64,000 nt of DNA from Romanomermis culicivorax (lineage: Eukaryota; Nematoda; Enoplea; Mermithida; Mermithidae): positions 124,001 through 188,000 of the forward strand of contig CAWUHX010000167.1 in NCBI GenBank assembly GCA_963922205.1, in the 5' to 3' direction. Position 1 is the first letter of the stretch, and every line of letters begins with the position of its first letter. The translations under genes and the position numbers were made by a program. Below are positions 561-64,000 of the stretch, piece by piece. The notes below the pieces were generated by a model. The model saw only the letters and a list, made by a program, of their open reading frames with translations. It was not told the DNA's origin and made no database searches.

Positions 561-1730
561 CATACATGTAATGGAGCTACGAAGTCTGAGGGGCAGTGTT
601 TTTTTCTGCAACCAACTTTCTGCACAGTGCAGAATAGCCAAAAAAAGTTTCTGCACTGCGGTTTTCTCCTGTTACCACTGTTTTTTCCCACAGTCCTTTT
701 TCCCAAATGGTAAAAGGGGTCAAATTTTTTCCCCATTTTCCCCAAGTCGTTTTTCGCTTAAAAATGCTCATAGACGCTTTTTTGAGCTTTTTCAAATCTT
801 CTGGTGTTTTAAGAGCAGTTAATTTATTAAAATTGAGGAAAAAATTGAAATTTTCGAGTTTGATCGAAGTCTAATCTACAATCATTGTGGAACAAATTTT
901 CTAGCAAACTATCCAAGAGCAAAATGACTATGAATTACATGAGAAATCGATAGTCAAGTCCTCTATGAAGACAGGTGAGAGCCCAAAAAAGATATCAATC
1001 TTTCCTTCGAGAAGCGCCGGAAAATTTTTTTAGGTATTGACATTCTGCGACGCTGGAAAATCTTTCCCGAACATTTATTTCAAGAATTAGATTCGAATTC
1101 TGTGCTCATAAGTCGTAATTTCTGGAATTTTATTTTATGAAAAATTTTAAAACCAGTAATTTATTCGCAAACTCTCATGAACTTGGCCGAAAAGATGAGA
1201 GTAAGACGAGTAGAAATTTCCGAAAACTATTTCCATGAAGCTTTTGAATTAATTTTATGTTAATAAAGGAATGGTCGCCTGAAAAAGTTTAGAAACTTGA
1301 CGTATTGATCTTTCTCAAAAAATTTATCAAGGAAAAATGCGAATCTACATTAAATATCGAGATAAAATATCGAAGCCTATCAATTAAGACATGAGATAAT
1401 ACATTTAAGATGATGAAAACTATTATAGATAGACATGCTAAAAGTCGCGCCTGAGCTAGGTAATACATAATAACGATTATTAAAGTTCGCGCTGGAACAT
1501 TTTGAGATTACGACCTTCTAAAATGCACTAAAATGCATCTTTTCTGTATCCGATCCCCAAAATTTTCTTCCCCAAATGGGAAAAGAGCCCAAAATCTTTT
1601 TCCCTTTTGCGAATTTTTTTCCCAAAAAAGCACGATTTGGGGGAAAAAACAGTGCCTGTTACAGCACAATAATAATGAAAAAAGTCACTTGACACACCCC
1701 AGTGAGGGTATCCCCCCAATAACATGTATG
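561..1730. mobile_element. Split CATACATGTAA-family element interrupted by later insertions
   Basis: The left end at 561 reads CATACATGTAATGGAGC and the right end at 1730 reads CCCCCCAATAACATGTATG. These are the two ends of the poly-G MITE family described below. Most of the middle is foreign, including the hAT element at 676-1654. Flanks (AAGAAAAC and AATTAAAT) match only partly, so this is an old copy or the pairing is wrong. Confidence 0.45.
676..1654. mobile_element. hAT-like non-autonomous element, 979 bp, perfect 8-bp target duplication
   Basis: Terminal inverted repeats CACTGTTTTTTCCC and GGGAAAAAACAGTG are flanked on both sides by CCTGTTAC (668-675 and 1655-1662). Eight-base duplications with CA.TG-type ends point to the hAT superfamily. 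No transposase reading frame remains. A decayed copy of the GCGC hairpin module sits near 1012-1020. Confidence 0.82.
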
Positions 1731-5100: not shown

Positions 5101-8100
5101 CCCCATACTTTTGGTCGGAAAAATACTGAAAAATATTAATTTTTTGATGAAAAATGTCCATTTTTGAACAAAAAATGGTCAAAAACGTCAATTTTCTCGG
5201 CGCTTCGCGCCATAAGTACATATTTTATCATTTTTTAGACAAAAATTACTACTTTTTAAACCGTTTTTCGACATTTTTCATGAAAAAAATCGATTTTTTT
5301 TCCCTTCAGGACCCCTCCCCCCAAAATTTTGGGAATTACTGACCCCCGGCCCCAAAAAAGTGCTGCAACCCCTCCCCCCCAGACCTCGGAGCTCCGTTAC
5401 ATGTATGCTTTCCCCATATAGGAATTTCCACCGAGAAACGTTCTTTCGTAAAATTTAACGCCTTCAGAAAGATTTTAATGCAAGTTGTAAAAGTAGTAAA
5501 AAACTGTAAAATATGGTACGATATTGATGGGTTTCGAAAACATAGTCGTATGAAAAAGAAATAAAGAATTAGAAACTATTACGGCAAGCAATAAGTTGTT
5601 AAGAGAAATCTAACTTTAAGAGTCGACGGCACATAAGGTTTCATGAATTTTGGAGCGCTGAAAATTAGTTGAGACAATAATTTAGCACTTCGTTCCTCGT
5701 TTCGATTTAACCCATTGAAATTCAATTCGTTGAGAATCTAAATTGAGAAAAATTGATATCGTGATTTTAAAAAAGAACTTATCGAACCTAAATCGGTCAT
5801 TGAAAATCGTTCGATGATACCCGTTACTGAAGATAATGCAGATTTCTACTTCGTTTTCGACAAATCAAACGATTACAAGAAAAAAATATAGAACATATCT
5901 CACAGAACTGAAGTGAGCTGTTTTTCATTTGCCTATTTCTGGTTTAGCAGTGAAGCTTCCTTACACTAAAACAAATTAATATCCATCGGAAGTTATCGTG
6001 AAAAAGTTAAAATAGAAATACCGAAGTCTGTTTTTCTTGAAATGCTTTTAAATGATAAAACTGAAAGATGTTTTACTAAACTATATTTCGAATAGGATTG
6101 GAAACTTGTGAGGATACTCGACGAACGTGTAACGATTTTTCAAGTAAAAAGTACCACAGTAAGAGCTTAGTGTAAACGATTTCGACGAAAGCACTAATTT
6201 TTTTCGTCTATTAATTTATAAACTTTTAAAAGAGACTACAAATTTAACTTTACCCTACTTGTATCAATACACGCCTTAAGACTGGCATGATTATTGCCGG
6301 ATTGACCTCGCTCAATTTTCCGAGCGAACAGACGACAAACTGTCGCATTTCGAAACTTTCATCTTGCAATGCGACGAAAATTAGTTGTAAAATTTCTGCT
6401 TGAGCCAAATGTATGTAATAGATATCGTCCGCCATCAAAGAACGTAAAACGCAAAGTCGAACTTCTTGATCTAGGAATACTTATGCACTTCATGGCCTAT
6501 CTAATTTTTTAAAAGTTTTTTAATGTGTTAGCTATATACACCATATAGGTATAGGCAAGGTACGCTAGCTAGTTTTTTAACGCGTAAGGTATATACAACG
6601 TGCATGTATACGCGAAGTACAAAATAGTGTAAACTGATGTTAGTGTAAAGACCGCTCCCACAGTAAGGTGAATTAGGGGTGTGTTTACCTACTTAATTCT
6701 TAAAGATCATTTATACTTGCTTTTTTCGATGGAACGGAACGGATCACCAAAAACTTGAAACGTTCAGCCTAAAAATCCGCTTTCGATCAGAAAGGATAAC
6801 TGCGATTTTCTAGAAAATGACCGGCAGTAACCTCGAACCGAACGGAACGAAAATTTCCTTTTCGCTCGGTAACATTGTGTCGATTGCATTCTGTTCCATT
6901 CCGTTCCATCGGAAAAGGCAAGTATAAATGACCCTTTAGGCTTAGGCTTAGGGCTGAGCGAAGCGGAACCATGTAGGCGAGGCGGGCGCCTAGCACCCGC
7001 CCCATTAGGTTTTTTTCCTGCATTTACTGGATTATACATTGGAGTTTACACTTTGATACTTACAGTGCCAAAAGATTTTTTATGGTGGGTATGCTCAGTT
7101 TTGCTGCTTACCATGACATTAATCTACGACCTTCGAGACTTTAAGTTAGAAGATCTCTACTTCTGAGCAACACCTGGTGAAGACACCGCAATATCACGGT
7201 GCCAAGAACGAGATTTGTTATGGCAGTATCCACAATGCTGAACCTGCGGTCAGCTTATGATTTCTCGTGGCCCAGCAAGATTGCTAAGACGTATGTCTCT
7301 GAAGCGTACACAGTGTAAAATAATGTTGGTGTAAAGATGACTATGTGCACTGAAGTAAGGGGAAGTACAGTATAGTGCCTTGTCAATTATCTACTAAATT
7401 CTTAAGCTTAGGCTTAGGGCAGAGAGGAGCAGAGCCACACAGGCGGGTGTGTAGTGCCCATCTTCTTGGGGGTTTTTCTGCATTTACTGGATTTCACATT
7501 TTACACTGTCAAAAATATTTTTAGGGAGGGTGGTGGGGGATGGAGGCGCGAAACCTTGCTCGTGTTCCTTACATATTCAAAAACTAGCTAGCGTACGTAG
7601 CCTGTACATACACGCTGTATATACTTTACACGTTGAAAAACTAGCAGCGTATGTTGCCTAAACATACATGCTGTATATACCTTAAACGTTAAAAAACTTG
7701 GAAAAAATTCAATAGGCCGTAAAGTGCATAAGTGGCGTACGGCGAATAGTAGCTCAACTATTCGAAACATGAAGTGAGAAATGCATTGACGAGAAAAAAA
7801 TATACAAGACATGATTGGATAAAAAAACTGGCTGAATAACTAGGAAATTGTATTATACATCTTAGTTAAAACTCTAATGGCGAAGACCGCAAAATAAATC
7901 TTTAGAAAACTTGTTCTTACAGAGAATTTCCATTTGCAAACATTATAATAATTAGCAGCAAATATAACTCACTTTTGTCGGTTACGCACAAAGCCATGAG
8001 CTTATTCATTATTTCACGAATTAATTCCAATGCCGCCTTTTCCTTATGTTTAAAAGGCTCGTTGTTGAATATCTTTATAAAAGGCGACAATAATAGAACC

Positions 8101-11100
8101 ACAGTTCTTGTTGCTGTCAATCTTATTTCAATAAACTTCGACTCCAAATATCCCTAAAACTTGGAGTTGACAAATATTTATCCAATATTTTGATTCCTTA
8201 TAGCTGTTTCTTACCGCCGTTATGAATTTCAAAAAAGATTCAGTCACGTAACGGGAAAATTCGAATTTCGACAGCGTATTCAAGGCTAAAATTGTCAGTT
8301 GCGGATCGGAAACAAGTACGGGAGTCGAAGGTAATTCTATGGGACGCGGGAAATCTAGAATGTTTGGCGGCGATTTTTGGATAAGTATAATTGACAACTG
8401 CTTGTGCAAGCCGTCTTCAACGTCCCGTTTGAGCTCGGGGATCTGCTTTACAATTTCATTCAAGGCAATTACAAGGTTGTAACTGAAAAAATAAACAGTC
8501 TAGAGATGCTGACAACAGAGAAATGGTGAAAAACGACATAAATTTCACCTCAATCCTGAAGTTAAAACTTGATCAATAATTGATCTTATATAAGAGAAAG
8601 TTTCGATGCCAACGTATTTTGTCAGCAAAGTTAGGCAATTGAAGATAAACGGATCACTCGACGTCATTTGTTTTTTCCTGTAAAGAAGAGAAAATAAGGG
8701 TGATATTTTATTTTTCATCATGTTTCAGATATTACTTGAGCGTATCTTTTGTCGAGGCGATGGAAAGCCGTATCTGTTCGAAAATTCGAGGCAAAAATGG
8801 CGATAATTTATCTTGTACAAAGACAGCGATGAAACCGATAGCGTTGAAAGCATTCATTTTTTCTTTGGATGTTACCAACACGTGAAGAATAAAAGTTACG
8901 GAATCTTCCAAGTATCTAAAACTCGATGCAGCATGATGAATTGTAATAGAGGAAAAAATTATCTGCGCGGAATGGAGCCCATAATTTTTCAATCAATACG
9001 TAATTTCAATACGTAAATAGGTAATGACATACTGGTGTGATCAATTATTGATAATAGAACGTACGTTTAGACAAGAGAGAAATCAAATAATTCTAACAGA
9101 ACATCTTTCGCGAAAAGTTTACTTTCGAATCCAATTCAAGTTGAATTATTTTTTCCACATTAATTGATAATTAAGGGAAGGTTTTTTAGGCCAATTAGGA
9201 GCCATGGCTCCTAAAAGTTCCGGTTGGCTCCTAAAAATTTAGCGGCACAAGCCGAATTGGATTGTAAAAATTATAGATTAATGACCTTTTTGATTAGTAG
9301 ATTCCTGTACGGAGATGATTTTTATGCATTTTGAAATAGAAAATACCAAAAATTTTCCCGCGCTTCGCGCCGGATTTCAAATCATTTATGATTCGTAGTA
9401 TCATTCTGTTGTGCGGTTATAAAATGTCGGCCTAGTTTATGCTTATAGCTTTTAAAAATCAGCATGTCATGGGAGAATGTTTGACCTTATATTGTTTTTT
9501 CGCGTATTTGACAAAAATCAAGGTTTTTCTAGATTGTTTTTACAAAATCGTTTTGTAGTGCTTTAGAATTTTCGGTTATCATGAACATAACTTTTTGCAT
9601 TTGAAAAATGATTGAAACCTCATCGGCATGGGAAAATGGCAAATTTTCTTGCTATCTGAAAAAGCCATCCAGATTCTTTGTTGCTTGCCTAATTCTTGAG
9701 TTTTAGTTTGCCAGACTGAAAATACATTGAATTCACTGAAAAATTGGGCACATTTCACGCAGGGAAAAGATATTTAAAATATTCATTTTCCAACGCTATA
9801 GAATATCAAAACCAAAATTTTCTTCTGGTGCTAAGAGCCGGAAATAATTATCAATATTTAAGTTGAAGTAAAATACCTATCGCGCTTTTTTATGCTACAA
9901 ATCATTTGAAAACTTTTTGATAAATAATTATGATTGGTACTGGCTCCAGATATATCAGATTGAAAATGAAGGAAAAATGTTTAACCTCTTTTGCCAACCC
10001 AATGATGAAAAGATCATGATCGATTATCGGTAAATTCAGAAGAATGTGCTGAAAACATGAAATTTCCGACATTTTAGAAACCTAGAAATCACAAAAGTTC
10101 CGAACAAGTTACTCTAGTCAACCTTTTGATTTTTTTTCTCCAAAACTCTGGAAATTCAGTTTGACGCGAACTGAATGAAATACAAGGGATATGATTTTTA
10201 ATCATTTTCTGATCATTTGGCGAATTTATCAGTTTTAGATTGAGCAACTGAAAATTTATGTGTGCAACCAAATTTCTCCCCAATTTACAGATCAACCTGG
10301 CTTGTGCGAAAAAAACCCGAGCCTGATAATTATGTGTGTGATTACGAATGTATTCAAAATGATTGATCTGTTATGTGAGCTTCTATAGAGATTTTGAAGA
10401 GTGTTTTTGACTAAATTTGATGAAAAAACTGTTTTTTACTACCACATTTATTTACAAACTTTTTAGTTTTGGCTTGTTGAAATTCCTATTGGCCTGTAAA
10501 ATTTTTACCTTAGGAGCCAAATGGCCTGTCGAGAAAAAACCAAAAAAAAACTGAATTAGGGTGTCATCATTGAGTTAAATAATTTTTCGACACGAAAATT
10601 CGTAATTTGAAAACTCACTTTTCTATAAACGAATCACGATTGAAAGCAGCTAACCGCGGCAAAATTTCCAACAAAATTTGTTGATTGAACATTTGTTTAT
10701 TCCATCGACATTTAAGTACGCTATTGGTAAGCTTCAAAAAGATATAACACGTTACACAAAATTCAAACTTTAAACAGAAAATTTACTCACAGCATCGTAA
10801 TTTTCTACGACGTATTTACGACACGTTCTGCTTACGAAGCGCGCCTTTTTTCTAGGCGCTAATAACCAGTTGTATACATTTTCCACGTCTTTGTGATTGA
10901 AAAATCTTTGACTTGTCATTGAACAGACAATCTTGAAAGTTAACAGACAACTTTGCTGAAGCACTACAGTTAAATTCCGTCTTGATAGTTGGATATGCAC
11001 AGAAAGATTTTTAACGTGTTAAGCGTATTTTTTATCTAATGTCGCGTTGTTTTTTCATGTAATTATTTGAAATTTTATACCATGCACAGAGGCCCAAATT

Positions 11101-15136: not shown

Positions 15137-16047
15137 CTCGTATTTAGAGGAGAGAAGGGGGGAATTCCCCCCTAAATTTTTTTACATTTAAAATTTCCAG
15201 TAATATCATTGTACTTAATACATCACAACTCCCAAATAAAATTTGCGTTATAAATGAAAAATAGTGACAATTTTCAGGCGCTTCGCGCCGGATTTTAATT
15301 ATTCAATAATTTTTCTATATTATTCCAGTGCGCGGTTAGAAAATGTCATTCTAGCTACTACATATAGTTTTTAATTATCAACATATTACGGATAAAGGTA
15401 TGATCGTGTGTTGTTTTTTGGCGAATTCAACGAAAAGAAAGATTTTTCTGGCATATTTTCCCAAAATTTTTTTCCGATGTTTACAAAAATTTTGACACTT
15501 GTGTGATTAAAAAATTTTTAGTTCAAGTCGAAATTCTTGGTGGTTGAAGAATTAAAATTCTTGGTTGCTTTCATAGTTTTTAAATTGTAGTTTGCCAGAT
15601 TGAAAATTCACTGGACTTTACTGAAAAATTAAACTTTCTGTCTATGAAATAAAAAGTGAAATGATTCATTTTCTAGCGTTTCAGGATGTCCAAATTCAAA
15701 AAAAATTTCCGGTGCTACGCGCCGAACAAGTTAATTCATATCAATCTTTTTCATTATTTCTCCAAAATTCAGAAAATTGGGTTTTGAAAGTTGAAAACCG
15801 ACGTGAATCATATTTTTTCCGATAAACATAAGCTAATTTAATGATTTTAGAGCGAGCAACCAAAAATCTATCTAAAACCAAAATTTTTCCCCCCTGGCAT
15901 GTGCAAAAAAACTGAATCCAAGCACACATACTTAAACTAACACAAAATAAGTCGTCTTTACTGCAAAAAATGAATTTCTTTTTATTCAGTAAGTTCCAAA
16001 AAAATTTTGGAAAATCGCCCCTCTTTTTTGAAAATCCTGGATACGGG
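15137..16047. mobile_element. Element with CCCGTAT(C/T)(C/T)AG ends, about 910 bp, long relative of 62013-62288
   Basis: The left end CTCGTATTTAGAGGAGAGAAGG and the right end CTGGATACGGG match, in inverted order, the 276-bp derivative at 62013-62288. The shared inner phrase is GTCGTCTTTACTGCAAAAAA. It carries an AGGCGCTTCGCGCCGG hairpin at 15276-15291 and hAT-like internal text. Non-coding. Confidence 0.6.
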
Positions 16048-16642
16048 TATGCCGGCGCCGCGCCGGAAGGAAGGAAAAATAAAATCCAGTCTATAGTTTT
16101 TTACTTTGACTGATCACAGAGATGTCGACCAGCTAAAAAATAGGTCGGGCACGATTTTCGCTCTTGCAAAAAAGTAATGCGTTATATAAACGTAGCTCTA
16201 ATCAGTGTTTCTTTTTTGCTGAAAACTTTTTGCCCCATTTGAGAAAAAACATCAAAAATTTTTTCCTCATGAAGAAAAATCAATTTTTTTAGTTTCCATG
16301 CTTGAAAATTCCTCAAAATCATTTCTGATGTGTTTTTTGACCGTTTCTCATTAACTTGCATCTTATTCCGCCAAAAAACCGACATTTTTTTGCAACAAGT
16401 TTCGAGCTATGGACCTGCTTATTAATAAATATTTAAGTGAGTTTACATGCGCCAAGCAAGAGATTAATTGAACGACATAACCTTTATATCTTATATTTCT
16501 TTGACGACATAAAACAACCTAATTTTGACATAAAAAGTTAATCAAACAGTAAACTTTGATGAAAAGATATCAATGAAAAATAAAATTTTTAAACTGATTT
16601 TGAACAGCTGACAATCTGACATAAAAGTATGAACTTGACCAC

Positions 16643-17850
16643 AGGGCTTTTTTTCTGGCCAAGTTGCAATGTGCAACTTGGGGAAAAATTTTGGTTGCAC
16701 AGATAAATTTATGGTTGCTCAGTCTAAAATCAATAAATTAGCTTAATTTTGTCGGAAAAACCACCAAAAGCTAGTATTCGATTCGCGTCCGTTTTTGGCT
16801 TTTAAAACCAAATTTTCGGAGTTTTGAAGAGAAAATTAAAAGAATGGTATGAGTGACTTGTTCGACGTCTAGCGCCGAAAATTTTTCGGGGATTCTGATT
16901 TTTGATGTTCTAGAAAGCTGGAGAATTAACCTTTTCAACTTGTATTGAAAACACAGGTTTAGTATTTCAGTAAATTCAATGAATTTTCAGTCCGGCAGAC
17001 TAAGGGTTTTTTTGCACATAGCAACCAAATTTTGGGCTGTGCAACAAAATTTTTTCTGCCAAGTTGCACAGTGCAACTTGAGGCCTGACTGCTCTTTCGA
17101 TTAGATATTAGGGTTTTCTGTCCGGAAATGCATTTTCATGCGTTCTAAAATGGAAAAAAAAGTGAAAATTTTCCGGTGCTTCGCGCCGGGTTTCACTTCA
17201 TTTATCATTTTTTATAATAATCTAGTGCGCGGTTAGAAAACTTCATTCTAGTTAGTGCTTATAGGTTCTAATTATCAACATATTATGGATAAATGTTTGA
17301 TCCTGTATTGTTTGTTGACGAATTTGATGAAAACTAACATTTTTCTCGGTCATTTTCCCAAAATTTTTTTGCGATCTTCATAAAAATATTGACTTTCATG
17401 TGATTAAAACATTTTGAGCGTAGAAATTTTTGCCGATTGAAAGATCCAAATTCTTAGTGGCTTGCCTGGTCTTTGAATTTTAGTTTGTCCAACTGAAAAT
17501 TCATAAAATTCACTGAGAAATCAAACCTTCTGTCTGGGAAATAAAAGGTGAAAAAATTCATTTTCCAGAGTTCTTGAATATTGAAATCCAGAAAAAAACC
17601 ACATTACTCTAGTCTAGTCATATTAATTTTTTCATTTTCTATCCAAACCTCGGAAAATTGGGTTTCAAATGTCTAAAACTGACGCGGATCGAATGAAATA
17701 CTAGAAAACTAGTTTGCGATAGTTTGTCGGATAAATGCAAGTAAATTTATCGATTTTAGAGCGAGCAATAAAAAAATTTATCTGTGCAACCAAAAAAATT
17801 TCTCCAAGTTGCACATTGCAACCTGGCCTGTGCAAAAAAAACCTGGAGAC
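16643..17850. mobile_element. Nested hAT-like elements with GTTGCACA(G/T)TGCAAC subterminal palindromes
   Basis: An outer left end CAGGGCTTTTTTTCTGGCC (16643) and an inner left end AAGGGTTTTTTTGCACA (about 17004) precede a right end GGCCTGTGCAAAAAAAACC (about 17830-17848). The palindrome AAGTTGCACAGTGCAACTT recurs beside the ends. A CCGGTGCTTCGCGCCGG hairpin lies at 17173-17189. No coding frame. Confidence 0.6.
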
Positions 17851-18336
17851 TACAATTTCAAATACTAGGAAAGCAACCAAGAATTTTGATTCTTCAACTA
17901 GCAAAAATTCCTACTTGGACTCAAAATGTTTTAATTACACAAATGTCAAAATATTTTTAAAGATCGCAAAAATGCTTTGGGAAAATAACAGAGAAAAATC
18001 TTGCTTTTCGTCAAATTCTCAAAAAAACGACACAGGACAGGATCAAACATTTTTCCATAACATCTTGTTAATTAAAAGCATAAGCATTACCAGTAGAATG
18101 GCATTTTCTAACCGCGCATTGGAATAATATATAGAAAAATTATTAAATAATTGAAATCCGGCGCGAAGCGCCGGAAAATTTCAACAATTTTCAATTTTAT
18201 AACGCGTAAAATGCACCTCCGATTGGGAAACCATAAAAAAATTTTCCCTCAAATTGGTGCCTAATTTCAAACAAATTTTACTCAATTCCAAAAAATTCCT
18301 CAAAAATGGTCGATTGAGGAAAAAAACTGTGGCTCT
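17851..18336 (-). mobile_element. Inverted hAT-like segment ending in a GAGGAAAAAAACTG terminus
   Basis: 17860-18180 is an inverted copy of the subterminal stretch found at about 17170-17480 and 15277-15560. It includes a perfect CCGGCGCGAAGCGCCGG hairpin at 18158-18174. The right limit reads GATTGAGGAAAAAAACTG (about 18312-18330), a hAT-type end related to the TIR of 676-1654. Confidence 0.5.
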
Positions 18337-18489
18337 CATACCTGTAATTGAGGGGCTTACCCAACTCCCCTCAGTTTAGAAAAATTCAGAAAAAATTGGC
18401 AAAAAAGTGCCTTTTTTTGGCCTTTTTTGGGAAAAATTTCGACTTTTTTCGACTCATCCCTCCAACTGGTCGGACCTCTTGCAGGTATG
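18337..18489. mobile_element. CATACCTGTAA MITE, 153 bp, perfect TSD GTGGCTCT
   Basis: The left end CATACCTGTAATTGAGGGG and the right end GGTCGGACCTCTTGCAGGTATG are flanked by identical GTGGCTCT (18329-18336 and 18490-18497). Sister family of the poly-G MITEs: same length of TIR and 8-bp duplication, with one central base changed. Confidence 0.85.
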
Positions 18490-19623: not shown

Positions 19624-20492
19624 CAGTTTTTTTTGTGCCAAAACATGGTTTTTGGCACAAAAAAATTTGGAATAGCACAAAAAATTTTGAGCGTTTGTGC
19701 CAATTGGCACAAATTTTTTGGCTGGTCAAACATTAAATTTCCTTGATTTTTAGACGTTTTAGGGGCTGAAAATGCAAAAAATTTTCGGCGCTTCGCGCCG
19801 AATCAATGAATATAATATTTCTCATTCGTATATTTGACCCGAACGCAAACGATTTCTCTTCGAACAGTGTATTAGTATCGTTGCAGCAAACTTTACAGGC
19901 TGTCAAGACTGATGAGTGAAAAGAAATTCCGAATATTCTCTCTTCATTCAGTCAGATTCAGATTCAAAACTGAAATTCTTTTTGTGTTTGATTGATTCAA
20001 ATAGAAAAGTCGATATTGTTGATATTTACAATGTTTACAATGTTTCGACCGAAAATGTTTCATGTTACAATGTTTCGATCGAAAATTAACACGATTTTCT
20101 ACTTGATTTTCTCCAGTCTTTACATGGTTGTTAAATATACATAACATAGATATTCGTTCGTAGTCGAAAATTGAATCAATTTGAACTTCCTGAACAATTC
20201 TAGAGCTATTTAAATTGTCTCAGCATTCCATTTCTTTTTGGGATTTCGTGAACTATTTTGTTGCACAGTTTTTTCTTTTCTCACTGACATGGTTAGCTGA
20301 AAAATAGGTTGGGCACGATTTTTACAAAAAATTAATGCGTTAAACGTTAACTTTTTATCAAACTTTTGGCTTAAAACTTTTCCGCAGTTTTCAGTATGTC
20401 TCTAGCGAAAAAAAATTTTTGTGCCATTGGCACAAATTTTTTTGGCCCCTTGTGCCAATTGGCACAAATGTCCGTGCGCAAAAAAAACGCTG
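19624..20492. mobile_element. hAT-like element 'GTGCCA', 869 bp, TSD TCAAAAAT
   Basis: The left end is CAGTTTTTTTTGTGCC; the right end is GTGCGCAAAAAAAACGCTG. The left flank is TCAAAAAT. The right copy of TCAAAAAT was itself split by the poly-G MITE at 20500-20947 and is restored once that insertion is removed. Subterminal TTGTGCCAATTGGCACAA palindromes. An ATTTTCGGCGCTTCGCGCCG hairpin module at 19781-19800. Confidence 0.82.
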
Positions 20493-20499
20493 TCAAAAA

Positions 20500-20947
20500 C
20501 ATACATGTAATTGGGGGGGGGGAAGTGCTATGGGAACCCCCCCCCCCCCAGAAATCGTCGACCATATGGCTAGCCATTGGGCGACCCCCCCCCCCAGGAT
20601 TTTCCAATCCTATGGCTAGCCATATGGTAGCCCTAGGAACCCCCATAGTTTTAGTCGGAAAAATACTGAAAAATGTCATTTTTTTCATGAAAAATGTCAA
20701 TTTTCGAACAAAAAATGGTCAAAAACGTCAATTTTCTCGGCGCTTCGCGCCATAAGATTTTATCATTTTTTAGACAAAAATTACTACTTTTTAAACAGTT
20801 TTTCGGACATTTTTCATTAAAAAAATAGAATTTTTTTTCCTTCAGGGACCCCTCCCCCCAAAATTTTGGGAATTACTGACCCCCGGCCCCAAAAAAGTGC
20901 TCCAACCCCCCCCCCCCCCCAGACCTCGGAGCTCCGTTACATGTATG
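20500..20947 (+). mobile_element. Poly-G MITE copy 2, TSD GTCAAAAA
   Basis: 448 bp, same orientation as copy 1. Ends CATACATGTAATTGG and CGTTACATGTATG; GTCAAAAA flanks at 20492-20499 and 20948-20955. Inserted exactly at the right target duplication of the hAT element 19624-20492. Hairpin CGGCGCTTCGCGCC at 20739-20752. Confidence 0.9.
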
Positions 20948-22104: not shown

Positions 22105-22490
22105 GTCTGACCACATGTAAGACGATTTTTTGTGGGTGGTCATCAATTGCCAAAATCTTACAGTGGGCCATTAAAAAAAAAATTTCGATTTTTTGGCCCA
22201 AAAAGTCTAGAAAATGATTCAAAAAGTAGTTGTAAAATAACCATAAAAACATGGCGCGAAGCGACGGAAAAATTGACATTTTTGACAGTCTTAGCTCAAA
22301 AATGATCATTTTTTAACCAAAAAATTGGCCTTATTCAGTTTTTTTCGACCGCAGAGATGAGGGTTCTTTGACTAGCCCATTTCAGCTATATCATAGGCAA
22401 ATCTTAAGGGGTCACCGTAAGTTTAGCGCCATCGCCGATGATTTCTGGGGGATTCTTATAGCACCTTCGCTCAATTGTATGTTTGCAGAT
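22105..22490 (-). mobile_element. Decayed relative of the poly-G MITE
   Basis: Contains GGCGCGAAGCGACGG and AAAATTGACATTTTTGAC at about 22252-22285, then GATGATTTCTGGGGG, TTATAGCAC and CAATTGTATGTTTG. These are the same blocks, in the same order, as the reverse-oriented copy at 22671-23106. Ends and duplication are no longer clear. Confidence 0.5.
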
Positions 22491-22611: not shown

Positions 22612-23325
22612 GGGGCCGGTTTCGCTGAGCTGCAGCTTAACTCTATATGTTATAACATTGCCGTTAAGCTCATATACATGTAACGGAGCTCCGAGGTCTG
22701 GGGGGCTTGGAGCACTTTTTTTGGGCCGGGGGTCAGTAATTCCCAAATTTTGGGGGAGGGGTCGCTGAAGGAAAAAAAACTCGATTTTTTCATGAAAAAT
22801 GTCCGAAAACCGGTTCAAAAAGTAGTAATTTTTGTCTAAAAAATGATAGAATATGTACTTATGGCGCGAAGCGCCGAGAAAATTGACGTTTTTGACCATT
22901 TTTGTTCAAAAATTGACATTTTTCATGAAAAAATGGCATTTTTCAGTATTTTTCCGACTAAAACTATGGGGGGTCCCTAGGGCTACCGTATGGCTAGCCA
23001 TAGGATTGGAAAATCCTGGGGGGGGTCGCCCAATGGCTAGCCATATGGTCGACGATTTCTGGGGGGGGGGTGTTCCCATAGCACTTCCCCCCCAATTACA
23101 TGTATGGTTAAGCTGTAGCTCAGCTGCAGCTTAGCTCACGCACACAAAACATATCAAGAAAGTTAAGCTGCAGCTGAGCTACACCTTAACTCTGTATGTT
23201 ATAACATTGCCGTTAAAGTGCAGCTCAGCATGCTGATGCAGCTGAGCTACAGCTTAACGGCAATGGTGTGACAAATAGTTGAGCTGCAGCTCAGCTGGAG
23301 CAGTCTCTTTGATGAAACCGGCCCC
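22612..23325. mobile_element. MITE with GGGGCCGGTTTC ends and AGCTGCAGCT repeats, hosting a poly-G MITE
   Basis: Perfect 12-bp inverted ends: GGGGCCGGTTTC (22612) and GAAACCGGCCCC (23325). The subterminal regions consist of repeated AGCTGCAGCT/CAGCTCAGCT palindromes on both sides. The central TATGTTATAACATTGCCGTTAA phrase occurs twice. Interrupted by 22671-23106. Superfamily not settled. Confidence 0.75.
22671..23106 (-). mobile_element. Poly-G MITE copy 3 (reverse), TSD GTTAAGCT
   Basis: 436 bp in reverse orientation. Flanked by GTTAAGCT at 22663-22670 and 23107-23114. The left end has a 2-base insertion (CATATACATG). Reverse-complement hairpin GGCGCGAAGCGCCG at 22863-22876. Confidence 0.88.
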
Positions 23326-31628: not shown

Positions 31629-31879
31629 GGCCCTGTCATACTTCACCGCGCGGCGCCGCGCGGTACCGCCATTGAAGTATGAATAGGTTTTTGTAATTTT
31701 TGCGGCGCCCCGTCAGGTTTCAACTAAACCAATACACATTTTTTGAGAAGAGCAAAATCCAAAAGTAAAAAAGCGGCGCCGTACGGCGCCGCGCGGCGAA
31801 GTATGACAAGCCACCGCGCGGCGCCGCCTGTTAGTATGAATAGGACAACCGGCACCGCGCGGCGAAGTATGACAGGGCC
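31629..31879. mobile_element. GC-rich palindromic MITE (GGCCCTGTCATACTTC ends), ~251 bp
   Basis: Ends GGCCCTGTCATACTTCACCG and GCGGCGAAGTATGACAGGGCC, with TA or TAA at the junctions. Inside are repeated CCGCGCGGCGCCGCGCGG palindromes, notably GC-rich for this window. Probably PIF/Harbinger-like. Nested in 30870-31905. Confidence 0.75.
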
Positions 31880-39400: not shown

Positions 39401-42400
39401 AGCTTATGAAATGTTGTTAAATGTATTCAAGCGACAAGTTGAAATATTTTCGGTTTAGATTGCCAGTCAAAAAATAATGGCATTGAATAAATGCACAGAG
39501 CGAGCCAAAAGAAGGCGACAGGTGCTGACTTTCATAGCCTTCAAATGGATGAAGCTTTTTTAGAGCAGTTTGCTGCCGTCGATAGATAAAACATCTGGCA
39601 TAAAAACTGCAAAGTTTCAGTCAGACTGTTCAAATATTGACTGACTAGAAACAAGAATACTAAACCTGGTTTTTTTTTGATCAAGGATTTTTTTGATCCT
39701 GGCGAAATTTGGCCCATATTGAAATAAGAAACTGCCAACTTTAAATTACGTGTAAATCGCAAATCTGGGTGATTTTTAAAGTACTCTCTTGTGTAAAAAA
39801 CCTTAAAACTCATTTTTAAAATAGGACAACTTTTACTTAGATTTCACAACTTTTAATTTTTGAAAAACGACCACTTATACAAAATTTTTGTTTATCTGAA
39901 AAACATAAAGGTTAAGAGCCTAAGACTTGGCCCTAACAAAAAAGACAAATATATGATTCTAATACAGCAATCCACATTAAGAAAGCTTCATCCATTCGAC
40001 AGTTATGAAAGTCAGCACCGGTCGTCTTTTTTAGCTCGCCATGTGTAAGGAAATTGGGAATATTTACAAAATTCATCGCGAAAATGCCAATTCTCACTGT
40101 ATTTTCAAAGTGTGTTTTATTCACTCTAATCTGAGATGAGAAACAGATTGGTGGAAGCAATCAAGGTTAACTGAGAAATGCAACAAAACTTCTTCTCGAC
40201 TACGCCTTAGCCCAATTTTAGTGAATGTTATGAATTATTGTCAATACCGGCGCGAAGCGCAGGGAAAATATAAAATTTAGACTTTTCGAATTGCACCAAA
40301 ATGCGTCTTCTCACCTATGCCAACAGTATAAACGCTCAAAAAAATTTCCGTTCAATACGGAAAAGGCCCGAAAACTTTTCCGCACGGTCAAAAAGAGTCC
40401 GTAGTGTGCGGAAAAAACCCTGATAGGTACATACAGCTGTACGAACAAAGTCTTTGAGCATAGTAAAAAACAAAGTTTCGTAACATTCTTTGCTTTCAGT
40501 CAATCAATGAAAACATGTTGATTTTACTTTCGAGATTCCTGAAAATTTTAACAGTAAAAATGACCATTAAAAGCCAAAAGTAAAAAGTTCCCAGAAGCAA
40601 TTAAATAAATTTGAAAATGCGATAAAATGTTCATTTAATTATGAATTTTTCAAGATATTCACGGTTTTCACGGTCCAACTAAAAATTTTCGGCTTTTTCC
40701 CGGCTTTCCCGATCGCTATGAACCCTGTGGTTTGAAAATTTGCGTCAGGATTTTCTCTGGGACCAACAAAAAATCTTTGCTTCAGGAGCAACGTCTACTG
40801 TAGAAATATAAGGTTCTTCCTGCTGAAAAAATCGTACATGCATCAGGATCGAAGCAGCTAATTTGAATTTTGTACGACTGTTCTTATCAGATTAACAATC
40901 ATATTTTATGCAAATTAAATTACAATTTCATTAAGCTAACATAATTTTTAAATTTTGATATGGCGACGCAATTCGATATAGCAACGCAGTTTAAAAACAT
41001 AAGGCTCACCAATAATGAAAGGGATTTGATATAAAGCTGGGAAAGTCAACCCGACAATAAAACGTAATGCACTAAACATGAAAATGTTGGTCGCGAATGC
41101 ATTGGCTGTTCCGAAACCGACTTGAATGGCCAATATTGAAAAAAATGACGCTCTTCGACCCCACCTGCAAAAAATGATCCACTAACCGTGAAAACGCTAG
41201 CCATATGGTCGACGATTTCTGGGGGGGGGGTCCCATAGCACTTCCCCCCAATTACATGTATGGTCGTGAGCTACAATTAATTTTCATTTCTCTTTAAAGT
41301 TTGAGGAGCTAGAATTCTGAGTTTCATTCGACTGAGAAAAAGTTCCTGATTTTGAATGTAACTCATTTGAACTAAGCTCGAAAATAATTTTTGATATGGA
41401 ATCCTAAAACTTCCGACACAAAAACAAAGTATCGGAACCATACATGTAACGAGATCCTGAGGTCTGGGAGGGAAGGTCGGGCGACCTTTTTGGGCCGGAG
41501 GTCAGTGATTCCCAAAATTTTAAGGGGAGGAGGAAGCAAAATTTTTTATTTTTTTCACTAAAAAAGTCCGAAAATCGGTTAAAAAATAGTGATTTTGTCT
41601 AAAAAACTGTAAAAAATGTATTCATGGTGCCGAGCATCGGGAAAATTGACATTTTTGACCATTTTTAGTTTAAAAATTTACAATATTCAGCAAAAAATTG
41701 TCATTTTTCAGCATTTTTCCAACCAAAAGTATCTGGGTCCCTCTGACTATGTGTCTGGCCATAGGATTGGGAAATCCTGGGGGGTGTTGCCTAATGGCTA
41801 GCCATAGATTTCTGGGAGGGGGTTTCTATAGCACTTCCCCCTCCCAATTGCATATATGATCGGAACATGAAAAAACTAACGCTGATGTAAAAACTCAAAT
41901 AAAATTGAAGAACTTCAACCTGCCGGCACCCGGCACGGAACATTTGGCTCAAGATTACACGCGTACTCTAGAATTTTCGAAACATTGTCAGTTCGATCGA
42001 AGACGATTAATAACTTCATAAGCCTTTTCTAACCAATGCTTACTTATCTGCAATATAACCGAATACGATATTTCCAATGAGGCTTCCAATGTAGAAAACC
42101 ATTGTCGAGAACGCAGGTAGATACGCACGTTCGCATACCAGATTGAACTAAAAACGTGACCAATAGAAAAATTGAGTGACCTGAGGAATGTATTTTCAAG
42201 TAGAAAATTCATATCCAGTTTATGCTTGTTTAATGTTTGTACTGCAAGTCTTTACCGCGCCTTTCGAGATGATGCTGTTTCCGCTTTAGCACCTTGCTTT
42301 CTTAATGAAAAAATTATGGAAAACAGAAACAAAGAAACTGGTGAATGGCGGAGAAATAAAATATTCGTCTAAATTTTTCAAGATCATTTCTTCTACAAAG

Positions 42401-45400
42401 ACATCATAGAGACGGTAGTGTTTATCCGATGCTTGCACAAAAAAGCTAAAACATTTTTTCAATATCACTCAACGGTATGCGATCGGCATTTTGAAGAAAA
42501 TGTACATTCTTATCCGTAGTTTTTTTACTGCTTTTTACCTGGGTCAAAATTTTCAGAGTAAAGTCAAACTCGTAAAATTCTGAGCAACTTATTGTGGTAA
42601 GAAAAGATACATAATCTTTGATGCGTGAGCTCTGAAAGAGATGTTCCCGTTTTGCAATTTTTGAATTCACAGTTTTGATTTTGTTGTTTTCAAAACTGCA
42701 ACTGCAAATTTACAGTGTTGAAAAAAGTGCTCATGAATGGCTTACTATAATAAAAAATGCCGCTAAAAGTGTCAACAGTCAGTATTGAGCAATTTCAAAC
42801 GATTTTGTAGGTCAGAAAAACAAAAGGTTGGGTCGGAATTTCGGTTGTGTATCAGTTTGAATATGACGCAATTTTTGCTCTTGCGCTCAAATTTTTTGAG
42901 GATGGCTGATTTCTTTATATTTCTACTCGGTTGAAGCCCACTGTCAATAGGCGATGAAAAACATTTTCTCTTCACAATGCTGCTACTCAGTACAAAACAA
43001 TCGCCGTGGCAGACAATCAGATCTTTCATACTAGAACTCTAAAATTGGAATGCTTAATCAAATCAAATTGAAGTTCGTAGAAGCTTTGCAATTTTTTTAA
43101 TATAATTTTTCTAAAAGAACTATTTTTATTCGCTCTTTGCTTTTCTCGACCCTTCAAGTTGAAGTTGAATGTTAGAACAGTTGAAAGCTTCAACTGTTCT
43201 AACATGGCTAAAACTTTGACCACTTTGATATAATGCTAAGGTTACCTCGTTCTTGTTGAAAACCTTCGTCCACACCAGGGTTTTTTCCGCACGCCTTCAT
43301 CCGCACTGTGCGGAAATGACCCAAATTTTTTTCCGCACACGAAAACTTTTTCCGTTCGAAGTTTAAATCATTTGAAAAATGTGTGAAATGAGCGAAAATT
43401 ATAGATTGCTAAGAAAATAATGAAAAGTATCTGTTTTTCTATCTCAAAAACATTATTTTAGATTGATTGAGCAAAGTTAATAGTTGCTGCTGTCATTTCT
43501 GTGATTAGAGCTGAAGATTTATAGATTCCAATTGATTTTCCAATTGATTCAATTTCTACATTTTGATATTCTAGAATGCTGGAAAATGAGCCTTTTCAAC
43601 CTTTATCTCTAAAATAGAAGGTTTCAAAAATCGTGTAGTTTCCCAATGACAAAATTTGTGTTCACAAAGTTCAGAAAACCTCAAGTGAGAGAAAGAATTC
43701 ATGATGATCAATATTAAATCTCAATTTTCAACAAAATCCGAACCTATAGTCCGTTTTTTACAAAATGCTTTCCAATTGAAAAAGTAACACGAATAAATAT
43801 TTACACTGTCGTATAAATCTTTAACATAGAGCTCTTGCCTTAAAATTTCTCACTCGAAAAATTTTAAAGGTTAGGTCAGTATGCTCGCAAATTTCCAGTC
43901 CTATATGATATATTGTTTTTCAGAAAATCGTGAAAATCTGGAATACTACTTGCTTTCCACCTTCATTAGTTAGAAGCATTTCAAGAAAAAAGACTATAAT
44001 ACTGAAGATTACTAATTGATGAATGGGATGAGAAACTTCAAATCATGAAAACCATGCACACTTAACTTCTGATGCGTCACACCAGAGAATTTTTGAACAA
44101 AGGAGCTACTAAAATCTTGGAAAATGTATTCTAGAGATAATTTGTAATACTTTCGGTTTAGATTTTTCCTAGAAAAATGATGGTATTAAATAAATGTGTG
44201 GAGAAATGTGGGAAAAATCAGCAAATTCATATGAGAATTCCAATTCACACTACAAAGTGACGAGTTTTACTCACTCTAGCAGAGACATATAAGATTGATG
44301 GAAACAATCAGGGACAACCGAGAAATCAAACTAAATTTCTTTTTGGCTGTGCTTCAGCTTAATTGTAGTTAATATTATAAATTATTTTCATTGCCGGCGC
44401 TCCGCGCCGGAAAAATTTGAGATTTTGACCACCCAAATTGCACCAAAATGCACCTTTTCATCAATGCCAGCAGTAGAAACTCCCAAAGAAATTTCCGCTC
44501 TGTGCGGAAAATGCCCAAAAATTTTTCCGCACAGCTCAAAAAAAAGTCCGCACTGTGCGGAAAAAAACCCTGGTCTACACAACAGAAATGTTATTTCTCG
44601 TCATAAACTTTTTGTTTTTTTAAATTAATGCATCTCGAGGCTTTTCAACTGGAGTTGGATCATAAAAACAAATGCTTGCGTTTACAGGGATCATACAGAT
44701 TCCCTGAAACCAAATCCCCTGACTTGGTTTTTTCAACGAAAATTCCCACTTTTTTTTGTATAAAATTATGTAATAAAGTTCTTTCCGTGAAAAAAGTAAA
44801 TCCACGACACAAATAGTCCGTTTCGAAACGTCGTCAGAAAAGATAGATTTTCCCGGCCTTTTAGCGAGTTAATATCTCAAGATTTACGGGCGTTTTAGCA
44901 TAATTTCCATTTTTTGGCATAATTCCGGTCGATAAGTGTACTTATCTCATTGTTGTGACATTGTTAAATGTAAATAATATGCCGGAAATATTTCTTCATT
45001 TTTCATTCAAGTCATGTTTACGTACTCAAAATTACTCAGACAGAATACTTGAAAGGCCTAAAATTTAAAATATACACTTACAGTCAAATAGCGGAAAAAT
45101 CTTTTTTGCGCATTAACTCCATGATAACGTTTTTTCGACATCAGTTTTAGCAGTTTTAACAGTACTTTGAATAAACTACTGTTATTGCTCTGATATTTGA
45201 ACCTATTTTTAATTGAGACAGAAAAAATTCGTTCAGCGCAGAAATTTTTTAACCATTTCTGCGCGAGTGCAGATAGAGACGTACACAAAAAAGAATTTGT
45301 GAGATAGAAAATTCAATTTGTGCGGTCATCTTTTTTTTGCTTTTAACGTGGTTCATATAACAATTTCAGAAAAATATGCAATTGTTTTTCAACTTAATCC

Positions 45401-49311: not shown

Positions 49312-50644
49312 CAGGGTTTTTTTGGCCAATTAGGAGCCATGGCTCCTAAAAATTTTGGCGCACAAGCCAAATCGGCTTGTAAAAATGAGAGCCTAACCAC
49401 CCTTTTTGATTAGGCTATAGGGCTTCCTGTGCGGAGATGCATTCCAAAACGAAAAATACCGAAAATTTTCCGGCGCTTCGCGACGGATTTCAAATCATTT
49501 ATGATTCTTGGTATCATTTCTGTTGTGCGGTTAGAAAATGTCATCCTAGCTTATGCTTATAGCTTTCAGAAACCAGCATGTTATGGATGAATGTTTGACC
49601 TTGTATGGTTTTTTCCACGTATTTGACAAAAATTAAGATTTTCCTAGATTAGTTCTACTTTTCGCATTTGGAAAATGATTGAAACATCCACATGGGAAAA
49701 TGGCAGAGGTTCTTGCTATCTGAAGAAGCCAATTTTTGAATTCTAGTGTTTGCCCCACAGAATACTCATTGAATTCACTGAAAAAATAGGCCTTTCATGC
49801 AGGAAAAAGATTTACAATGCTATAGAATATCGTAATCTAAAATTTTGTTTCAGTGCTAAGCGCCGGAGATATTCAAGTCCGAAGTAAAATATCTATTGCG
49901 CTTTTTTACGTTATAGATCATGTGAAAACAATCGCTTTTGATAAATAATTGTGATTGGTAAATTACTGCCTCCAGACATATAAGATCCAAACAGGAGGTA
50001 AAATTTTTGACCTCTTCCGCCAGTCAAATGGTGAAAAGATCAGTCATCGGCAGTTGCAGCAGAATGTGATGAAAAATGCATTTTCCAACATTTTAGAGGC
50101 CTCGAGATCAATATTTTTCGGCGCCAGGTACCGAACAAGTTACTTTAGCCAGACTTTTGATTTCTTTCTAAAAACTCAAGAAATTCAATTCTAAAAGTCA
50201 GGAACTGATGCGAAGTGAATGAAATACAAGGGAAGTAACTTTTAATCATTTTTTCTGATGAAATTAAGCGAATTTATCAATTTTATAGTGAACAACTAAA
50301 AATTATAATCTGTGCAACCAAATTTTTCCCCAAGTAACAGATCAACGTGGCCTGTGTGAAAAAGCCCTGATGATGTATTTGCATGATGACAGATCATTTT
50401 TGAGCCTTATTATTCTGTGTGTGATTAAGAAAGTATTCAAAATGATTGATCTGTTACATATGTGGAATTCTTTTTGAAGATTTTGAAGAGTGTTTTTGAC
50501 TAAATTTGTTGAAAACACCATTGTTTTACTACCACATTTATTTACATACTATTTAGTTTTGGCTTGTTGGAATTCTTTTTGGCCTGTAAAATTTTGACCT
50601 TAGGAGCCAAATGGCCTGTCGGGAAAAAACCAAAAAAACCCCTG
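49312..50644. mobile_element. hAT-like element 'GGAGCC' copy 2, 1333 bp
   Basis: Ends CAGGGTTTTTTTGGCCAATT and GGCCTGTCGGGAAAAAACC, then a CCCCTG finish. Flanks GATGCGAG and AATGTGAG agree at 6 of 8. Collinear over its length with 9178-10553. Hairpin CCGGCGCTTCGCGACGG at 49470-49486. Confidence 0.8.
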
Positions 50645-55566: not shown

Positions 55567-56007
55567 CATACATGTAACGGGGCCCCAAGGTCTGGGGGGG
55601 GGGGGGTCAGGCGACTTTTTTTCGGGCCGAGGATCAGTAATTCCCAACATTTTTGGTGAGGGGTCTCAAAGAAAAAAAATTCGATTTTTTCACGAAAAAT
55701 GTGCGAAAAATAGTTCAAAAAATTGTAGTTTTTTCTAAAAAGACCAAAAAATGTATTCATGGCGCGAAGGGCCAAGAAAATTCACATTTTTTACCGTTTT
55801 TTATTCAAAAATTGACATTTTTCATCAAAAAATTGATATTTGGCAGTATTTTTCCGTCCAAAAGTATGGGGGTCCCTACGGCTACCATATGGCTAGCCGT
55901 TGGATTGGAAAATCCTGAGGAGGGGCGGTCGCCCAATCGCAAGCCATATGGTCGAAGATTTCTGGGGGGGGGGGGGATTTCCATAGCACCCTCCAATTAG
56001 ATGTATG
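55567..56007 (-). mobile_element. Poly-G MITE copy 5 (reverse), TSD ATAACATA
   Basis: 441 bp, flanked by ATAACATA at 55559-55566 and 56008-56015. Ends CATACATGTAACGGGG and CCAATTAGATGTATG. Hairpin decayed to GGCGCGAAGGGCC at 55760. Confidence 0.88.
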
Positions 56008-57529: not shown

Positions 57530-58184
57530 AAGTCACCGTCTTCGAGAATTTTTTCTACATGAGAACCATCCCAAAACCTTTTTTCATAATTTTCTAAAAA
57601 CTTCTCCCGATTTTAAAAAGCATTTATAATGAGGCCACGAATGTTTTTTTCCTACTTTTAGGAGTACAGGAGTATACCCAAACATTCTGACGTTTTTGGG
57701 GTCAGTAATCTGCAAAAATGAGGAAAAAATTGATAAAATTCTAGTCAGGTTAGTCAAATCCAGCTGATAAACGATACATTGGTGTTCTACAACAGTTGAA
57801 AGTACATTAAAGATATATTTCTTATAATTTCATCTGCAATCAACATTTGTGATTTAGATTAGTTATCAAATTTTATTTATTTCCTTTTCCGGCGCGAAAA
57901 GTTTCGGATTTTTCCTTTTTAAACCGCTGGAAAATGATTTTCTGCAAGGTTGAGAAATAAATTAAAAACAAACAGATAGAGTGTAATTTATTTCTCATTC
58001 CGGCGCGAAGCTCGTGAAATTTTTGACTTTTTTACTAACGCTAGAAAATAAATCTCTGCATGCAACAAAGATTCCTGACTAGAAACTCTAAATTTACAGT
58101 CTAGAATGATGTCTTCAATCTTCGTCGTCTATTAAAACAAAAGTTCACGTTGGAAGGAAACGTTCGTAAATTCCAAGCAGAGAG
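57530..58184. other. Gene-free stretch with hairpin-module debris
   Basis: Two damaged copies of the hairpin module (TTCCGGCGCGAAAAG near 57887 and TTCCGGCGCGAAGCTCG near 57997) with their usual flanks. No frame recognised. Confidence 0.4.
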
Positions 58185-62798: not shown

Positions 62799-62935
62799 AT
62801 GGCGCAAATGAACAATGCGCATTTGGTAATGGCGCATATGAAAAGTGGCGCAATTGCCAATGGCGCATATAAAACATGGCGCAGTTGGATTGGCGCAATT
62901 GGCAGAAGCGAATATGAAAAAGGCACAATTGGCTA
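62799..62935 (+). repeat. Irregular ATGGCGCA(A/T) minisatellite
   Basis: About nine spaced units of ATGGCGCAnnTGnnnA type (GGCGCATATGAAA, GGCGCAATTGCCA, GGCGCAGTTGGA) at 13-18-base steps. Each unit is centred on an NdeI- or MfeI-like palindrome. A run of open frame across it on both strands is a by-product of the repeat. Confidence 0.6.
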
Positions 62936-63362: not shown

Positions 63363-64000
63363 CAGTGTTTTTGGCGAAAAAATCTGGAAATGCAAGAAGA
63401 AATTTGGCAAAATTTTTTTTTAATTTTGAAGTCGGTGAGCTGTATTTTGGTGCATTTTAGAAGGTCAAAACCCCATAATTTTCCGGCGCTTCGCGCCGGC
63501 AAGGATAATTTTGATCATTGCTCGCTATAATACCACTCGAGAGCGATCGTAAGCATGTCTACTTTACTTACTAGTTAGCATTCAATAGTTGTTAACACCT
63601 AGAATGTCTCATCTCGTGGTTTAATCAACTTGATATTGCGTCTTATTGTTTGACGAAACTGGATTTTTTTGATTTTTTTACAAAATTTTTCTGCGGTCTT
63701 TACAAATTTTGAACCTTGTGAACATAATTTTTTTTGCATTCGGAGAATGATTGAAACATCAACAGTTTGGGACAGTGACAGTAATCGCTGGTTGAATAAT
63801 GCAAATTTTTGGTTGCTTTTCTGATTTTACAAATCAAGTGGCGTGCTTTCAATATGATTTTTTGCATTTTGTCCGACTGTGAAAAATGATTGGGTTGAAT
63901 GCAAAATTAGACCACTTATCAAGGTAATAAATGTCGAAGAGATTTATTTTCGAGAGTTCTAGTACCAAAACTCCAAAAAAATTTCGGCGTTTCGCGCCCG
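63363..64000. mobile_element. hAT-like element, left part, runs off the window
   Basis: Starts CAGTGTTTTTGGCG with a TTTTTGGCGAAAAA subterminal palindrome. A perfect CCGGCGCTTCGCGCCGG hairpin lies at 63483-63499, and another version (TTCGGCGTTTCGCGCC) reaches the window end. Internal text resembles 14.8-15.6 kb and 17.1-17.5 kb. Confidence 0.6.

What the first reader, a model, noticed from the sequence alone, without database searches (positions are those of the whole stretch)
63483..63499. A GC-rich 17-bp hairpin module shared by otherwise different transposon families
CCGGCGC-TTC-GCGCCGG, usually preceded by AAATTTT, is perfect at 63483 and 18158 and near-perfect at 5199, 9359, 15276, 17173, 19786, 20739, 22863, 44394 and 49470. 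Damaged copies are at 1012, 22252, 40247, 55760, 57887 and 57997. The hosts have different ends: CATACATGTAA MITEs, and hAT-like elements with GGAGCC, CCGCAC, GTGCCA or GTGCAC subterminal repeats. A GC palindrome kept in AT-rich, otherwise diverged elements suggests a shared function (transposase or host-factor site, fold-back RNA, insulator or origin-like hairpin) or repeated exchange between families.
Basis: partly seen in the sequence, partly recalled or inferred. Interest (0 to 1): 0.7.

Follow-up and report, generated by a model that had tools for sequence, protein, structure and literature searches.

The report
Shared hairpin module in many transposons
A short GC-rich DNA hairpin occurs nearly nineteen thousand times in this genome, and where it was examined it ends a roughly 60-base segment shared by otherwise different gene-less jumping elements, with its pairing and loop partly protected from change.

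Summary
The stem CCGGCGC-NNN-GCGCCGG (at most 1 mismatch) occurs 16,058 times in 359 Mb (reversed control 8); 2,823 more have both outer bases changed. It is not a free 17-bp unit: it is the 3' part of a stranded ~60-bp module (about 45 bp AT-rich DNA ending in AAAATTTT, then the hairpin), to which similarity between families is mostly confined. Hosts with resolved ends have hAT-like 8-bp target duplications. One element may hold several modules, in one orientation. Ends have been replaced: family A carries a buried family-D 3' terminus. Pairing is kept at the outer pair (C-G or T-A; doubles 13 times expectation) but hardly or not at the two inner pairs tested. Loop variants are TVC 3,058, TTD 1,777, VTC 291, which partly fits the very stable GNA DNA mini-hairpin. 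In the one family tested, copies decay without protection after insertion. Best reading: an old internal cis element retained in source lineages while ends change, comparable to SINE "highly conserved domains". Function is inferred, not shown.

The parts
63438..63499 (+). module of element C: ~45 bp AT-rich part plus hairpin
   Evidence: 88.7% over 62 nt with L007 1456-1517; 76.8% with 9318-9373 and 40302-40247
63483..63499 (+). perfect hairpin CCGGCGC-TTC-GCGCCGG (the given finding)
63984..64000 (+). second, damaged module hairpin of the same element, at the window edge
9178..10553 (+). family A element (hAT-like TIR, GGAGCC subterminal repeats), imperfect ends
   Evidence: best TSD 7/8 with TIR 7/12
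9357..9373 (+). family A module 1 hairpin, 1 mismatch
9825..9841 (+). family A module 2 hairpin, 3 mismatches
49312..50644 (+). family A element, TIR CAGGGTTTTTTT, TSD 6/8
49470..49486 (+). family A module 1 hairpin, 1 mismatch
49850..49866 (+). family A module 2 hairpin, 3 mismatches
50118..50134 (+). family A module 3 hairpin (TCGGCGC CAG GTACCGA), outer pair T-A
17003..17844 (+). family D element (GTGCAAC subterminal repeats), TSD 7/8, TIR 11/12
17173..17189 (+). family D module 1 hairpin, 1 mismatch
15275..15291 (+). family D-like module 1 hairpin, 1 mismatch
15709..15725 (+). family D-like module 2 hairpin, 2 mismatches
16862..16878 (-). family D-like module 3 hairpin, outer pair T-A, damaged
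18158..18174 (-). family D-like module 1, perfect hairpin
19785..19801 (+). T1-type module, hairpin with compensated outer pair TCGGCGC-TTC-GCGCCGA
20500..20947 (+). family G MITE, TIR CATACATGTAA, TSD GTCAAAAA 8/8
20737..20753 (+). family G hairpin TCGGCGC-TTC-GCGCCAT; outer two pairs not complementary
5197..5213 (+). family G hairpin
22861..22877 (-). family G hairpin (element about 22672-23107)
22251..22267 (-). related module in a neighbouring repeat, 3 mismatches
55759..55775 (-). family G hairpin, damaged
40247..40263 (-). family B hairpin, 1 mismatch
44394..44410 (-). family B perfect stem; loop GGA in module orientation
1004..1020 (-). family F hairpin, one arm damaged
58000..58016 (-). 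damaged module hairpin, element related to family E

Best explanation
The hairpin is the 3' part of a stranded ~60-bp module that is an old internal part of non-autonomous, hAT-like DNA elements. Shown: (1) elements carry up to three or four modules, all in one orientation in the elements examined; (2) element families with different termini share the module and in some cases the interior around it, and family A was formed by new ends around a family-D element whose 3' terminus is still buried inside it; (3) genome-wide, the outermost stem pair switches between C-G and T-A mostly in a paired way, inner stem positions are kept as sequence, and in the loop the first base is nearly fixed while the middle one is free. 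Inferred: the module is a cis-acting site needed for amplification of the source elements, read as a hairpin in single-stranded DNA (the strand with the GNA loop) or as a palindromic site by a transposase or host factor common to the families, so it is kept in source lineages while ends change and daughter copies decay.
For: Module extent: 57-65 nt cross-family matches that mostly end at the hairpin end; upstream identity between 27 module clusters 0.49 against 0.38 shuffled, downstream 0.41 against 0.39; leaving out the ascertained last 13 nt, 0.456 against 0.401, with 8.8% of pairs at 60% identity or more against 0. hAT-like TSD and TIR: families A, E and G 8/8, D 7/8. Buried end: family-D homology in three A elements stops at D17 base 841-842 of 842, which is 236-276 bp before A's own 3' end. 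Outer pair: exact 8,092, singles 2,669, doubles 2,823 against 220 expected; 45 of 50 listed doubles are T-A. T-A occurs in at least one copy in 8 of 27 clusters, and two clusters hold T-A beside C-G or C-A. Of the 16 T-A loci fetched without regard to context, 16 have AAAATTTT at 6/8 or better upstream. Loop: TVC 3,058, VTC 291. GNA loops in DNA are unusually stable (PMC4686876, passages).
Against: Pair 4-14: 18 doubles against 11 expected, 8 of 18 complementary, with little or no covariation. Pair 5-13: 53 against 22, but 19 of the 36 complementary doubles listed have TAC/TAT loops, like the one family seen in L020/L049/L051. TTD loops (1,777) break the GNA rule, though part is CpG decay. In the G MITE family, found without using the hairpin, the stem diverges as much as the rest (0.124 against 0.097) and its outer two pairs do not match. 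Copies inherit changes, so 13-fold is not 13-fold independent events. The DNA folding model gives the same -9 kcal/mol for the six loops tried. No transposase was identified. A weak downstream similarity exists (3.1% of pairs at 60% or more against 0.3%).
Confidence: 0.5

Rival explanations
1. Passenger DNA: the module is only common ancestry. Interiors are carried along while ends are replaced, and the hairpin stands out because it was the search key. Copy numbers reflect a few successful masters.
For: Families A and D share interiors; within the G family there is no stem protection; pair 4-14 behaves as independent; modules were found through the hairpin, so apparent stem conservation between clusters is inflated.
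Against: Flanks between clusters are near 50% identity while exact stems number 8,092; the outer pair switches in a paired way in several module lineages; the two loop T positions differ tenfold.
Confidence: 0.27
2. Mutational upkeep: the palindrome folds during replication and template switching copies one arm onto the other, so paired changes arise without selection.
For: Complementary doubles exist at all three pairs examined; outer pairs would be affected most; an F-family copy (L050) has a paired 5-13 change while the other five of its cluster keep C at position 5 and at least four of them G at position 13.
Against: 599 singles at pair 4-14 gave only 8 complementary doubles; T-A is mostly a lineage state (11 of 11 in the T1 cluster, 0 of 7 in E module 1); the G family shows no upkeep.
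Confidence: 0.13
3. Palindromic double-stranded binding site of a dimeric protein (transposase or zinc-finger host factor, insulator-like); the hairpin is never extruded.
For: Inner bases are kept as sequence; arms are symmetrical; families have other palindromes in their subterminal regions.
Against: Half-sites read independently would not give the 13-fold excess of paired outer doubles, and a pure spacer would not keep its first base.
Confidence: 0.25
4. RNA-level role: a transcribed hairpin, small-RNA precursor or AAUUUU-plus-hairpin (Sm-like) signal.
For: One orientation within elements; AAAATTTT directly before a hairpin.
Against: No Rfam match at gathering level in the window; in 11 module loci one match, E 0.45, far below its gathering score. 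No expression data here.
Confidence: 0.1

Closest known systems
SINE highly conserved domains (V, CORE, Deu) and the V domain inside MITE MER6 (PMC6887750; abstract and passages seen)
   Same: A short segment kept across otherwise different non-autonomous elements, able to pass between element types, with a suspected but unproven function.
   Different: V is ~120 bp, known from SINEs and spread over metazoans; here the segment is ~60 bp with a GC hairpin, in hAT-like DNA elements of one genome, several per element.
hAT-type MITEs and non-autonomous hAT elements (recalled)
   Same: 8-bp target duplications, short TIRs beginning CA, no coding capacity, subterminal repeats.
   Different: A shared internal hairpin module across families with different ends.
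GNA-loop DNA mini-hairpins, d(GCGAAGC) (PMC4686876, passages)
   Same: The strand opposite the TTC loop reads GCGAAGC; TCC, TAC and TGC loops give GNA on that strand.
   Different: That is chemistry of oligonucleotides; no such structure was shown here in cells.
Bacterial REP palindromes (PMC2817692, PMC3733652; search listing only)
   Same: Short, high-copy palindromic repeats.
   Different: Bacterial, usually free-standing; here embedded in eukaryotic elements.
Helitron 3' hairpin (recalled)
   Same: Short GC-rich hairpin in a non-autonomous element.
   Different: Here internal, repeated, with 8-bp duplications and no CTRR end.

Membership tests
hAT superfamily (non-autonomous) | 8-bp target site duplication | tested here: met
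   8/8 for A (L016), E (L005), G (window 20500-20947); 7/8 for D (17003-17844); A copies in the window 6/8 and 7/8; none credible for F (L007); B, C and T1 not tested
hAT superfamily (non-autonomous) | short TIRs beginning CA | tested here: met
   CAGGG (A), CACCG (E), CATACATG (G); D best read as AGGG
hAT superfamily (non-autonomous) | mobilised by a hAT transposase | not tested
   no hAT transposase search was made; P-superfamily elements also make 8-bp duplications (recalled)
Helitron | CTRR end shortly 3' of the hairpin | tested here: not met
   CTRR at +6..+20 in 4 of 77 modules, against 8 of 77 at +21..+35
Helitron | no target site duplication | tested here: not met
GNA DNA mini-hairpin | loop G-N-A (TNC on the other strand) | tested here: inconclusive
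   TVC 3,058, VTC 291, TTD 1,777; middle free, first base fixed, third base not
structural hairpin under selection | compensatory change in the stem | tested here: inconclusive
   strong at pair 1-17, one family plus near-chance at 5-13, little or none at 4-14; pairs 2-16, 3-15, 6-12 and 7-11 not tested genome-wide
known structured RNA | Rfam match | tested here: not met

The most novel reading that the evidence does not exclude
A 'highly conserved domain' of DNA transposons whose conserved core is a single-stranded-DNA mini-hairpin of the GNA class: a shared factor recognises the extruded hairpin, so unrelated-looking hAT-like families stay parasitic on the same machinery while swapping their terminal recognition sequences.
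Probability: 0.2. Interest if true: 0.75.

Novelty: new variant of a known kind. Interest (0 to 1): 0.5.

Why it matters
Ends normally define a DNA transposon family because the transposase reads them. Here ends are replaced and an internal module stays, in nearly nineteen thousand hairpins. If the module is used, it would be an internal requirement for amplification that several families share, and it gives a genome-wide natural mutagenesis set (stem and loop variants in thousands of copies) to test whether a DNA hairpin is read in a eukaryotic nucleus. If it is only a passenger, it still marks how non-autonomous elements acquire new ends.

Tried and rejected
Viral origin: the exact AAATTTT+stem pattern has 0 matches in viral contigs. 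Prokaryote collection: 3 matches in three bacterial MAGs, taken as chance or terminator-like and not read further. Known RNA: none. tRNA: none found with a bacterial-code search. Helitron: rejected. Folding energies with DNA parameters do not tell the six loops tried apart, so the GNA idea rests on published chemistry and counts. A first clustering with free end gaps merged 79 of 80 modules and was discarded; the second used ungapped identity. The mTOR domain shows a eukaryote; 'animal' is a guess from recalled gene structure. Literature: no paper in the held library has GGCGCTTCGCGCC or its complement; searches listed nothing that describes this module, judged from titles and abstract starts only. 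ORFs of 130 aa or more near modules were listed and looked at by eye only; they were not scanned.

Dropped rows: L001, L002, L003 and L006 were left out of most scripts as overlaps of L009 and L005. Two of 50 hits were dropped by name (GC-rich, no module). In one search, 80 of 110 hits passed the AAAATTTT filter, and 77 of these were clustered after a length filter. One of 17 T-A loci (L045) was fetched at a wrong coordinate and holds no hairpin. The 20 loci L052-L071 came largely from the AAATTTT-anchored list, so their context is not independent evidence.

Full report
What was checked. 23 matches with up to three mismatches stand against 0.15 expected. By context, 19 of the 23 are copies of the same thing; three are another GC-rich palindrome cluster at 31783-31865, and one (6983) lacks the context. 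The own genome (unnamed, 359,112,060 bases in 595 contigs) holds 16,058 places with at most one mismatch, against 8 for the reversed pattern. Of these 8,092 are exact. A further 2,823 have both outer bases changed, so at least 18,881 hairpins exist.

The real unit. Oriented by the AAAATTTT side, all copies read in one sense, and the loop begins with T in 72 of the 77 module copies clustered (this set was partly chosen by stem state). Local alignments between unlike elements cover 57-65 nt and mostly end at the last base of the hairpin, for example 63444-63499 with 9318-9373 and with 40302-40247. A few run further: 63438-63509 with 44455-44384, and 63445-63590 with L005. Between 27 module clusters the 45 nt upstream are 0.49 identical against 0.38 for shuffles, the 38 nt downstream 0.41 against 0.39. 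Without the last 13 upstream nt, which the search itself favoured, the values are 0.456 against 0.401, with 8.8% of cluster pairs at 60% or more against none. Downstream, 3.1% of pairs reach 60% against 0.3%. So the unit is about 45 bp of AT-rich DNA plus the hairpin, with a weak tail in some lineages. Of the 16 T-A hairpins fetched from the unanchored list, 16 have AAAATTTT at 6 of 8 or better upstream.

The hosts. Where ends could be resolved they are hAT-like: family A in L016 has the 8-bp duplication CCTTCAAG and TIR CAGGGTTTTT; family E in L005 has GTGCACAC and a perfect 12-bp TIR CACCGTTTTTTT; the 448-bp G MITE at 20500-20947 has GTCAAAAA and CATACATGTAA; family D at 17003-17844 has 7 of 8. 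The window copies of A have 6/8 and 7/8, and F in L007 gave nothing credible. No transposase was looked for. Modules recur within an element in one orientation: 49470, 49850, 50118 in A; 611, 977, 1098 in L009.

Ends are replaced. Family D element 17003-17844 aligns to three A elements through much of its length at 66-75% identity. In all three the homology stops at D base 841-842 of 842, its own 3' terminus, although the A elements go on for another 236-276 bp to their own GGAGCC end. On the 5' side homology begins 56-105 bp inside D. So A is a D-type interior with new ends around it.

Is pairing kept? For each pair I counted exact stems, stems with one side changed, and stems with both sides changed (exact patterns, whole genome). 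Pair 1-17: 8,092 / 2,669 / 2,823, where independence predicts at most 220 doubles; 45 of the 50 doubles listed are T-A. Pair 5-13: 843 singles, 53 doubles against 22; 36 of the 50 listed are T-A, but 19 of these 36 have TAC or TAT type loops, as in the one family seen in L020, L049 and L051. Pair 4-14: 599 singles, 18 doubles against 11, 8 of the 18 complementary, which is little or no covariation. The other four pairs were not tested genome-wide. The outer-pair result is not a single lineage: T-A is present in 8 of 27 clusters, and cluster 23 (E module 2 type) holds two C-G, two T-A and one C-A. But copies inherit changes, so the excess is not a count of events.

The loop. With Y..R stems, changes of the middle T give 3,058 hairpins, of the first T 291, and of the last C 1,777. 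The two T positions are the fair comparison (same base, neither in a CpG), and they differ tenfold. The third position is also free to some extent: it is a CpG, and TTG is common in one family (F). On the other strand TNC reads GNA, the loop class described as extraordinarily stable in DNA, with GCGAAGC melting near 78 C (PMC4686876, passages). The rule is therefore only partly met. The folding program gives -9 kcal/mol for all six loops tried and cannot test it. In 254 kb not chosen by hairpin, perfect arms are separated by 3 nt in 7 cases and by 1 nt in 1.

Against function. Nine copies of the G MITE were collected by whole-element alignment, blind to the hairpin. Their stem diverges from the family consensus by 0.124, the whole element by 0.097, and the two outer pairs do not match. 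So there is no protection after insertion, and at least this family spread with an imperfect hairpin. This is expected if only source copies are selected, but it also fits a passenger.

Reading. I take the anatomy (stranded ~60-bp module, hAT-like hosts, several per element, end replacement) as shown. That the module is a cis-acting site retained by source elements is the most likely explanation, at about even odds. A passenger, a double-stranded palindromic site, mutational upkeep and an RNA role remain. The nearest known phenomenon is the SINE highly conserved domain, one of which (V) also sits in a DNA transposon (PMC6887750; abstract and passages). What differs here is a hairpin core, DNA-element hosts, and several copies per element. 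I found no paper on this module in the searches made, which cover open-licence papers only and were judged from listings.

Noticed in passing
window 31783-31865: Separate cluster of GC-rich palindromes (GGCGCCGCGCGGCGA-like, repeated three times with TATGACA-like flanks), without the AAAATTTT module.
   Followed up: no
window 10220-10320 and 50203-50369: A family-D type 3' terminus lies buried inside family A elements.
   Followed up: yes
L046 about 250-280: A second, longer perfect palindrome (14-bp arms around TCAGCGCC/GGCGCTGA) in a T1-type element, close to the module.
   Followed up: no
window 16642-18340: An older element, split by element 17003-17844, seems to have a GTGCAAC-type end on one side and a CCTCAA-type end on the other; no target duplication was seen by eye, so a chimera is not proven.
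   Followed up: partly
window 9197-9220, 17060-17080, 20440-20460: Each family has its own perfect or near-perfect subterminal palindrome (TTAGGAGCCATGGCTCCTAA, AAGTTGCACAGTGCAACTT, GTGCCAATTGGCAC), often near AAAAATTTT.
   Followed up: partly
window 2081-2422 (-): Exon of an mTOR gene (PF11865, E 2e-22); nearby exons at 4163-4561 and 8131-8499 look like the same gene by eye.
   Followed up: partly
window 62799-62898: Minisatellite with a ~31-bp unit rich in ATGGCGCA.
   Followed up: no
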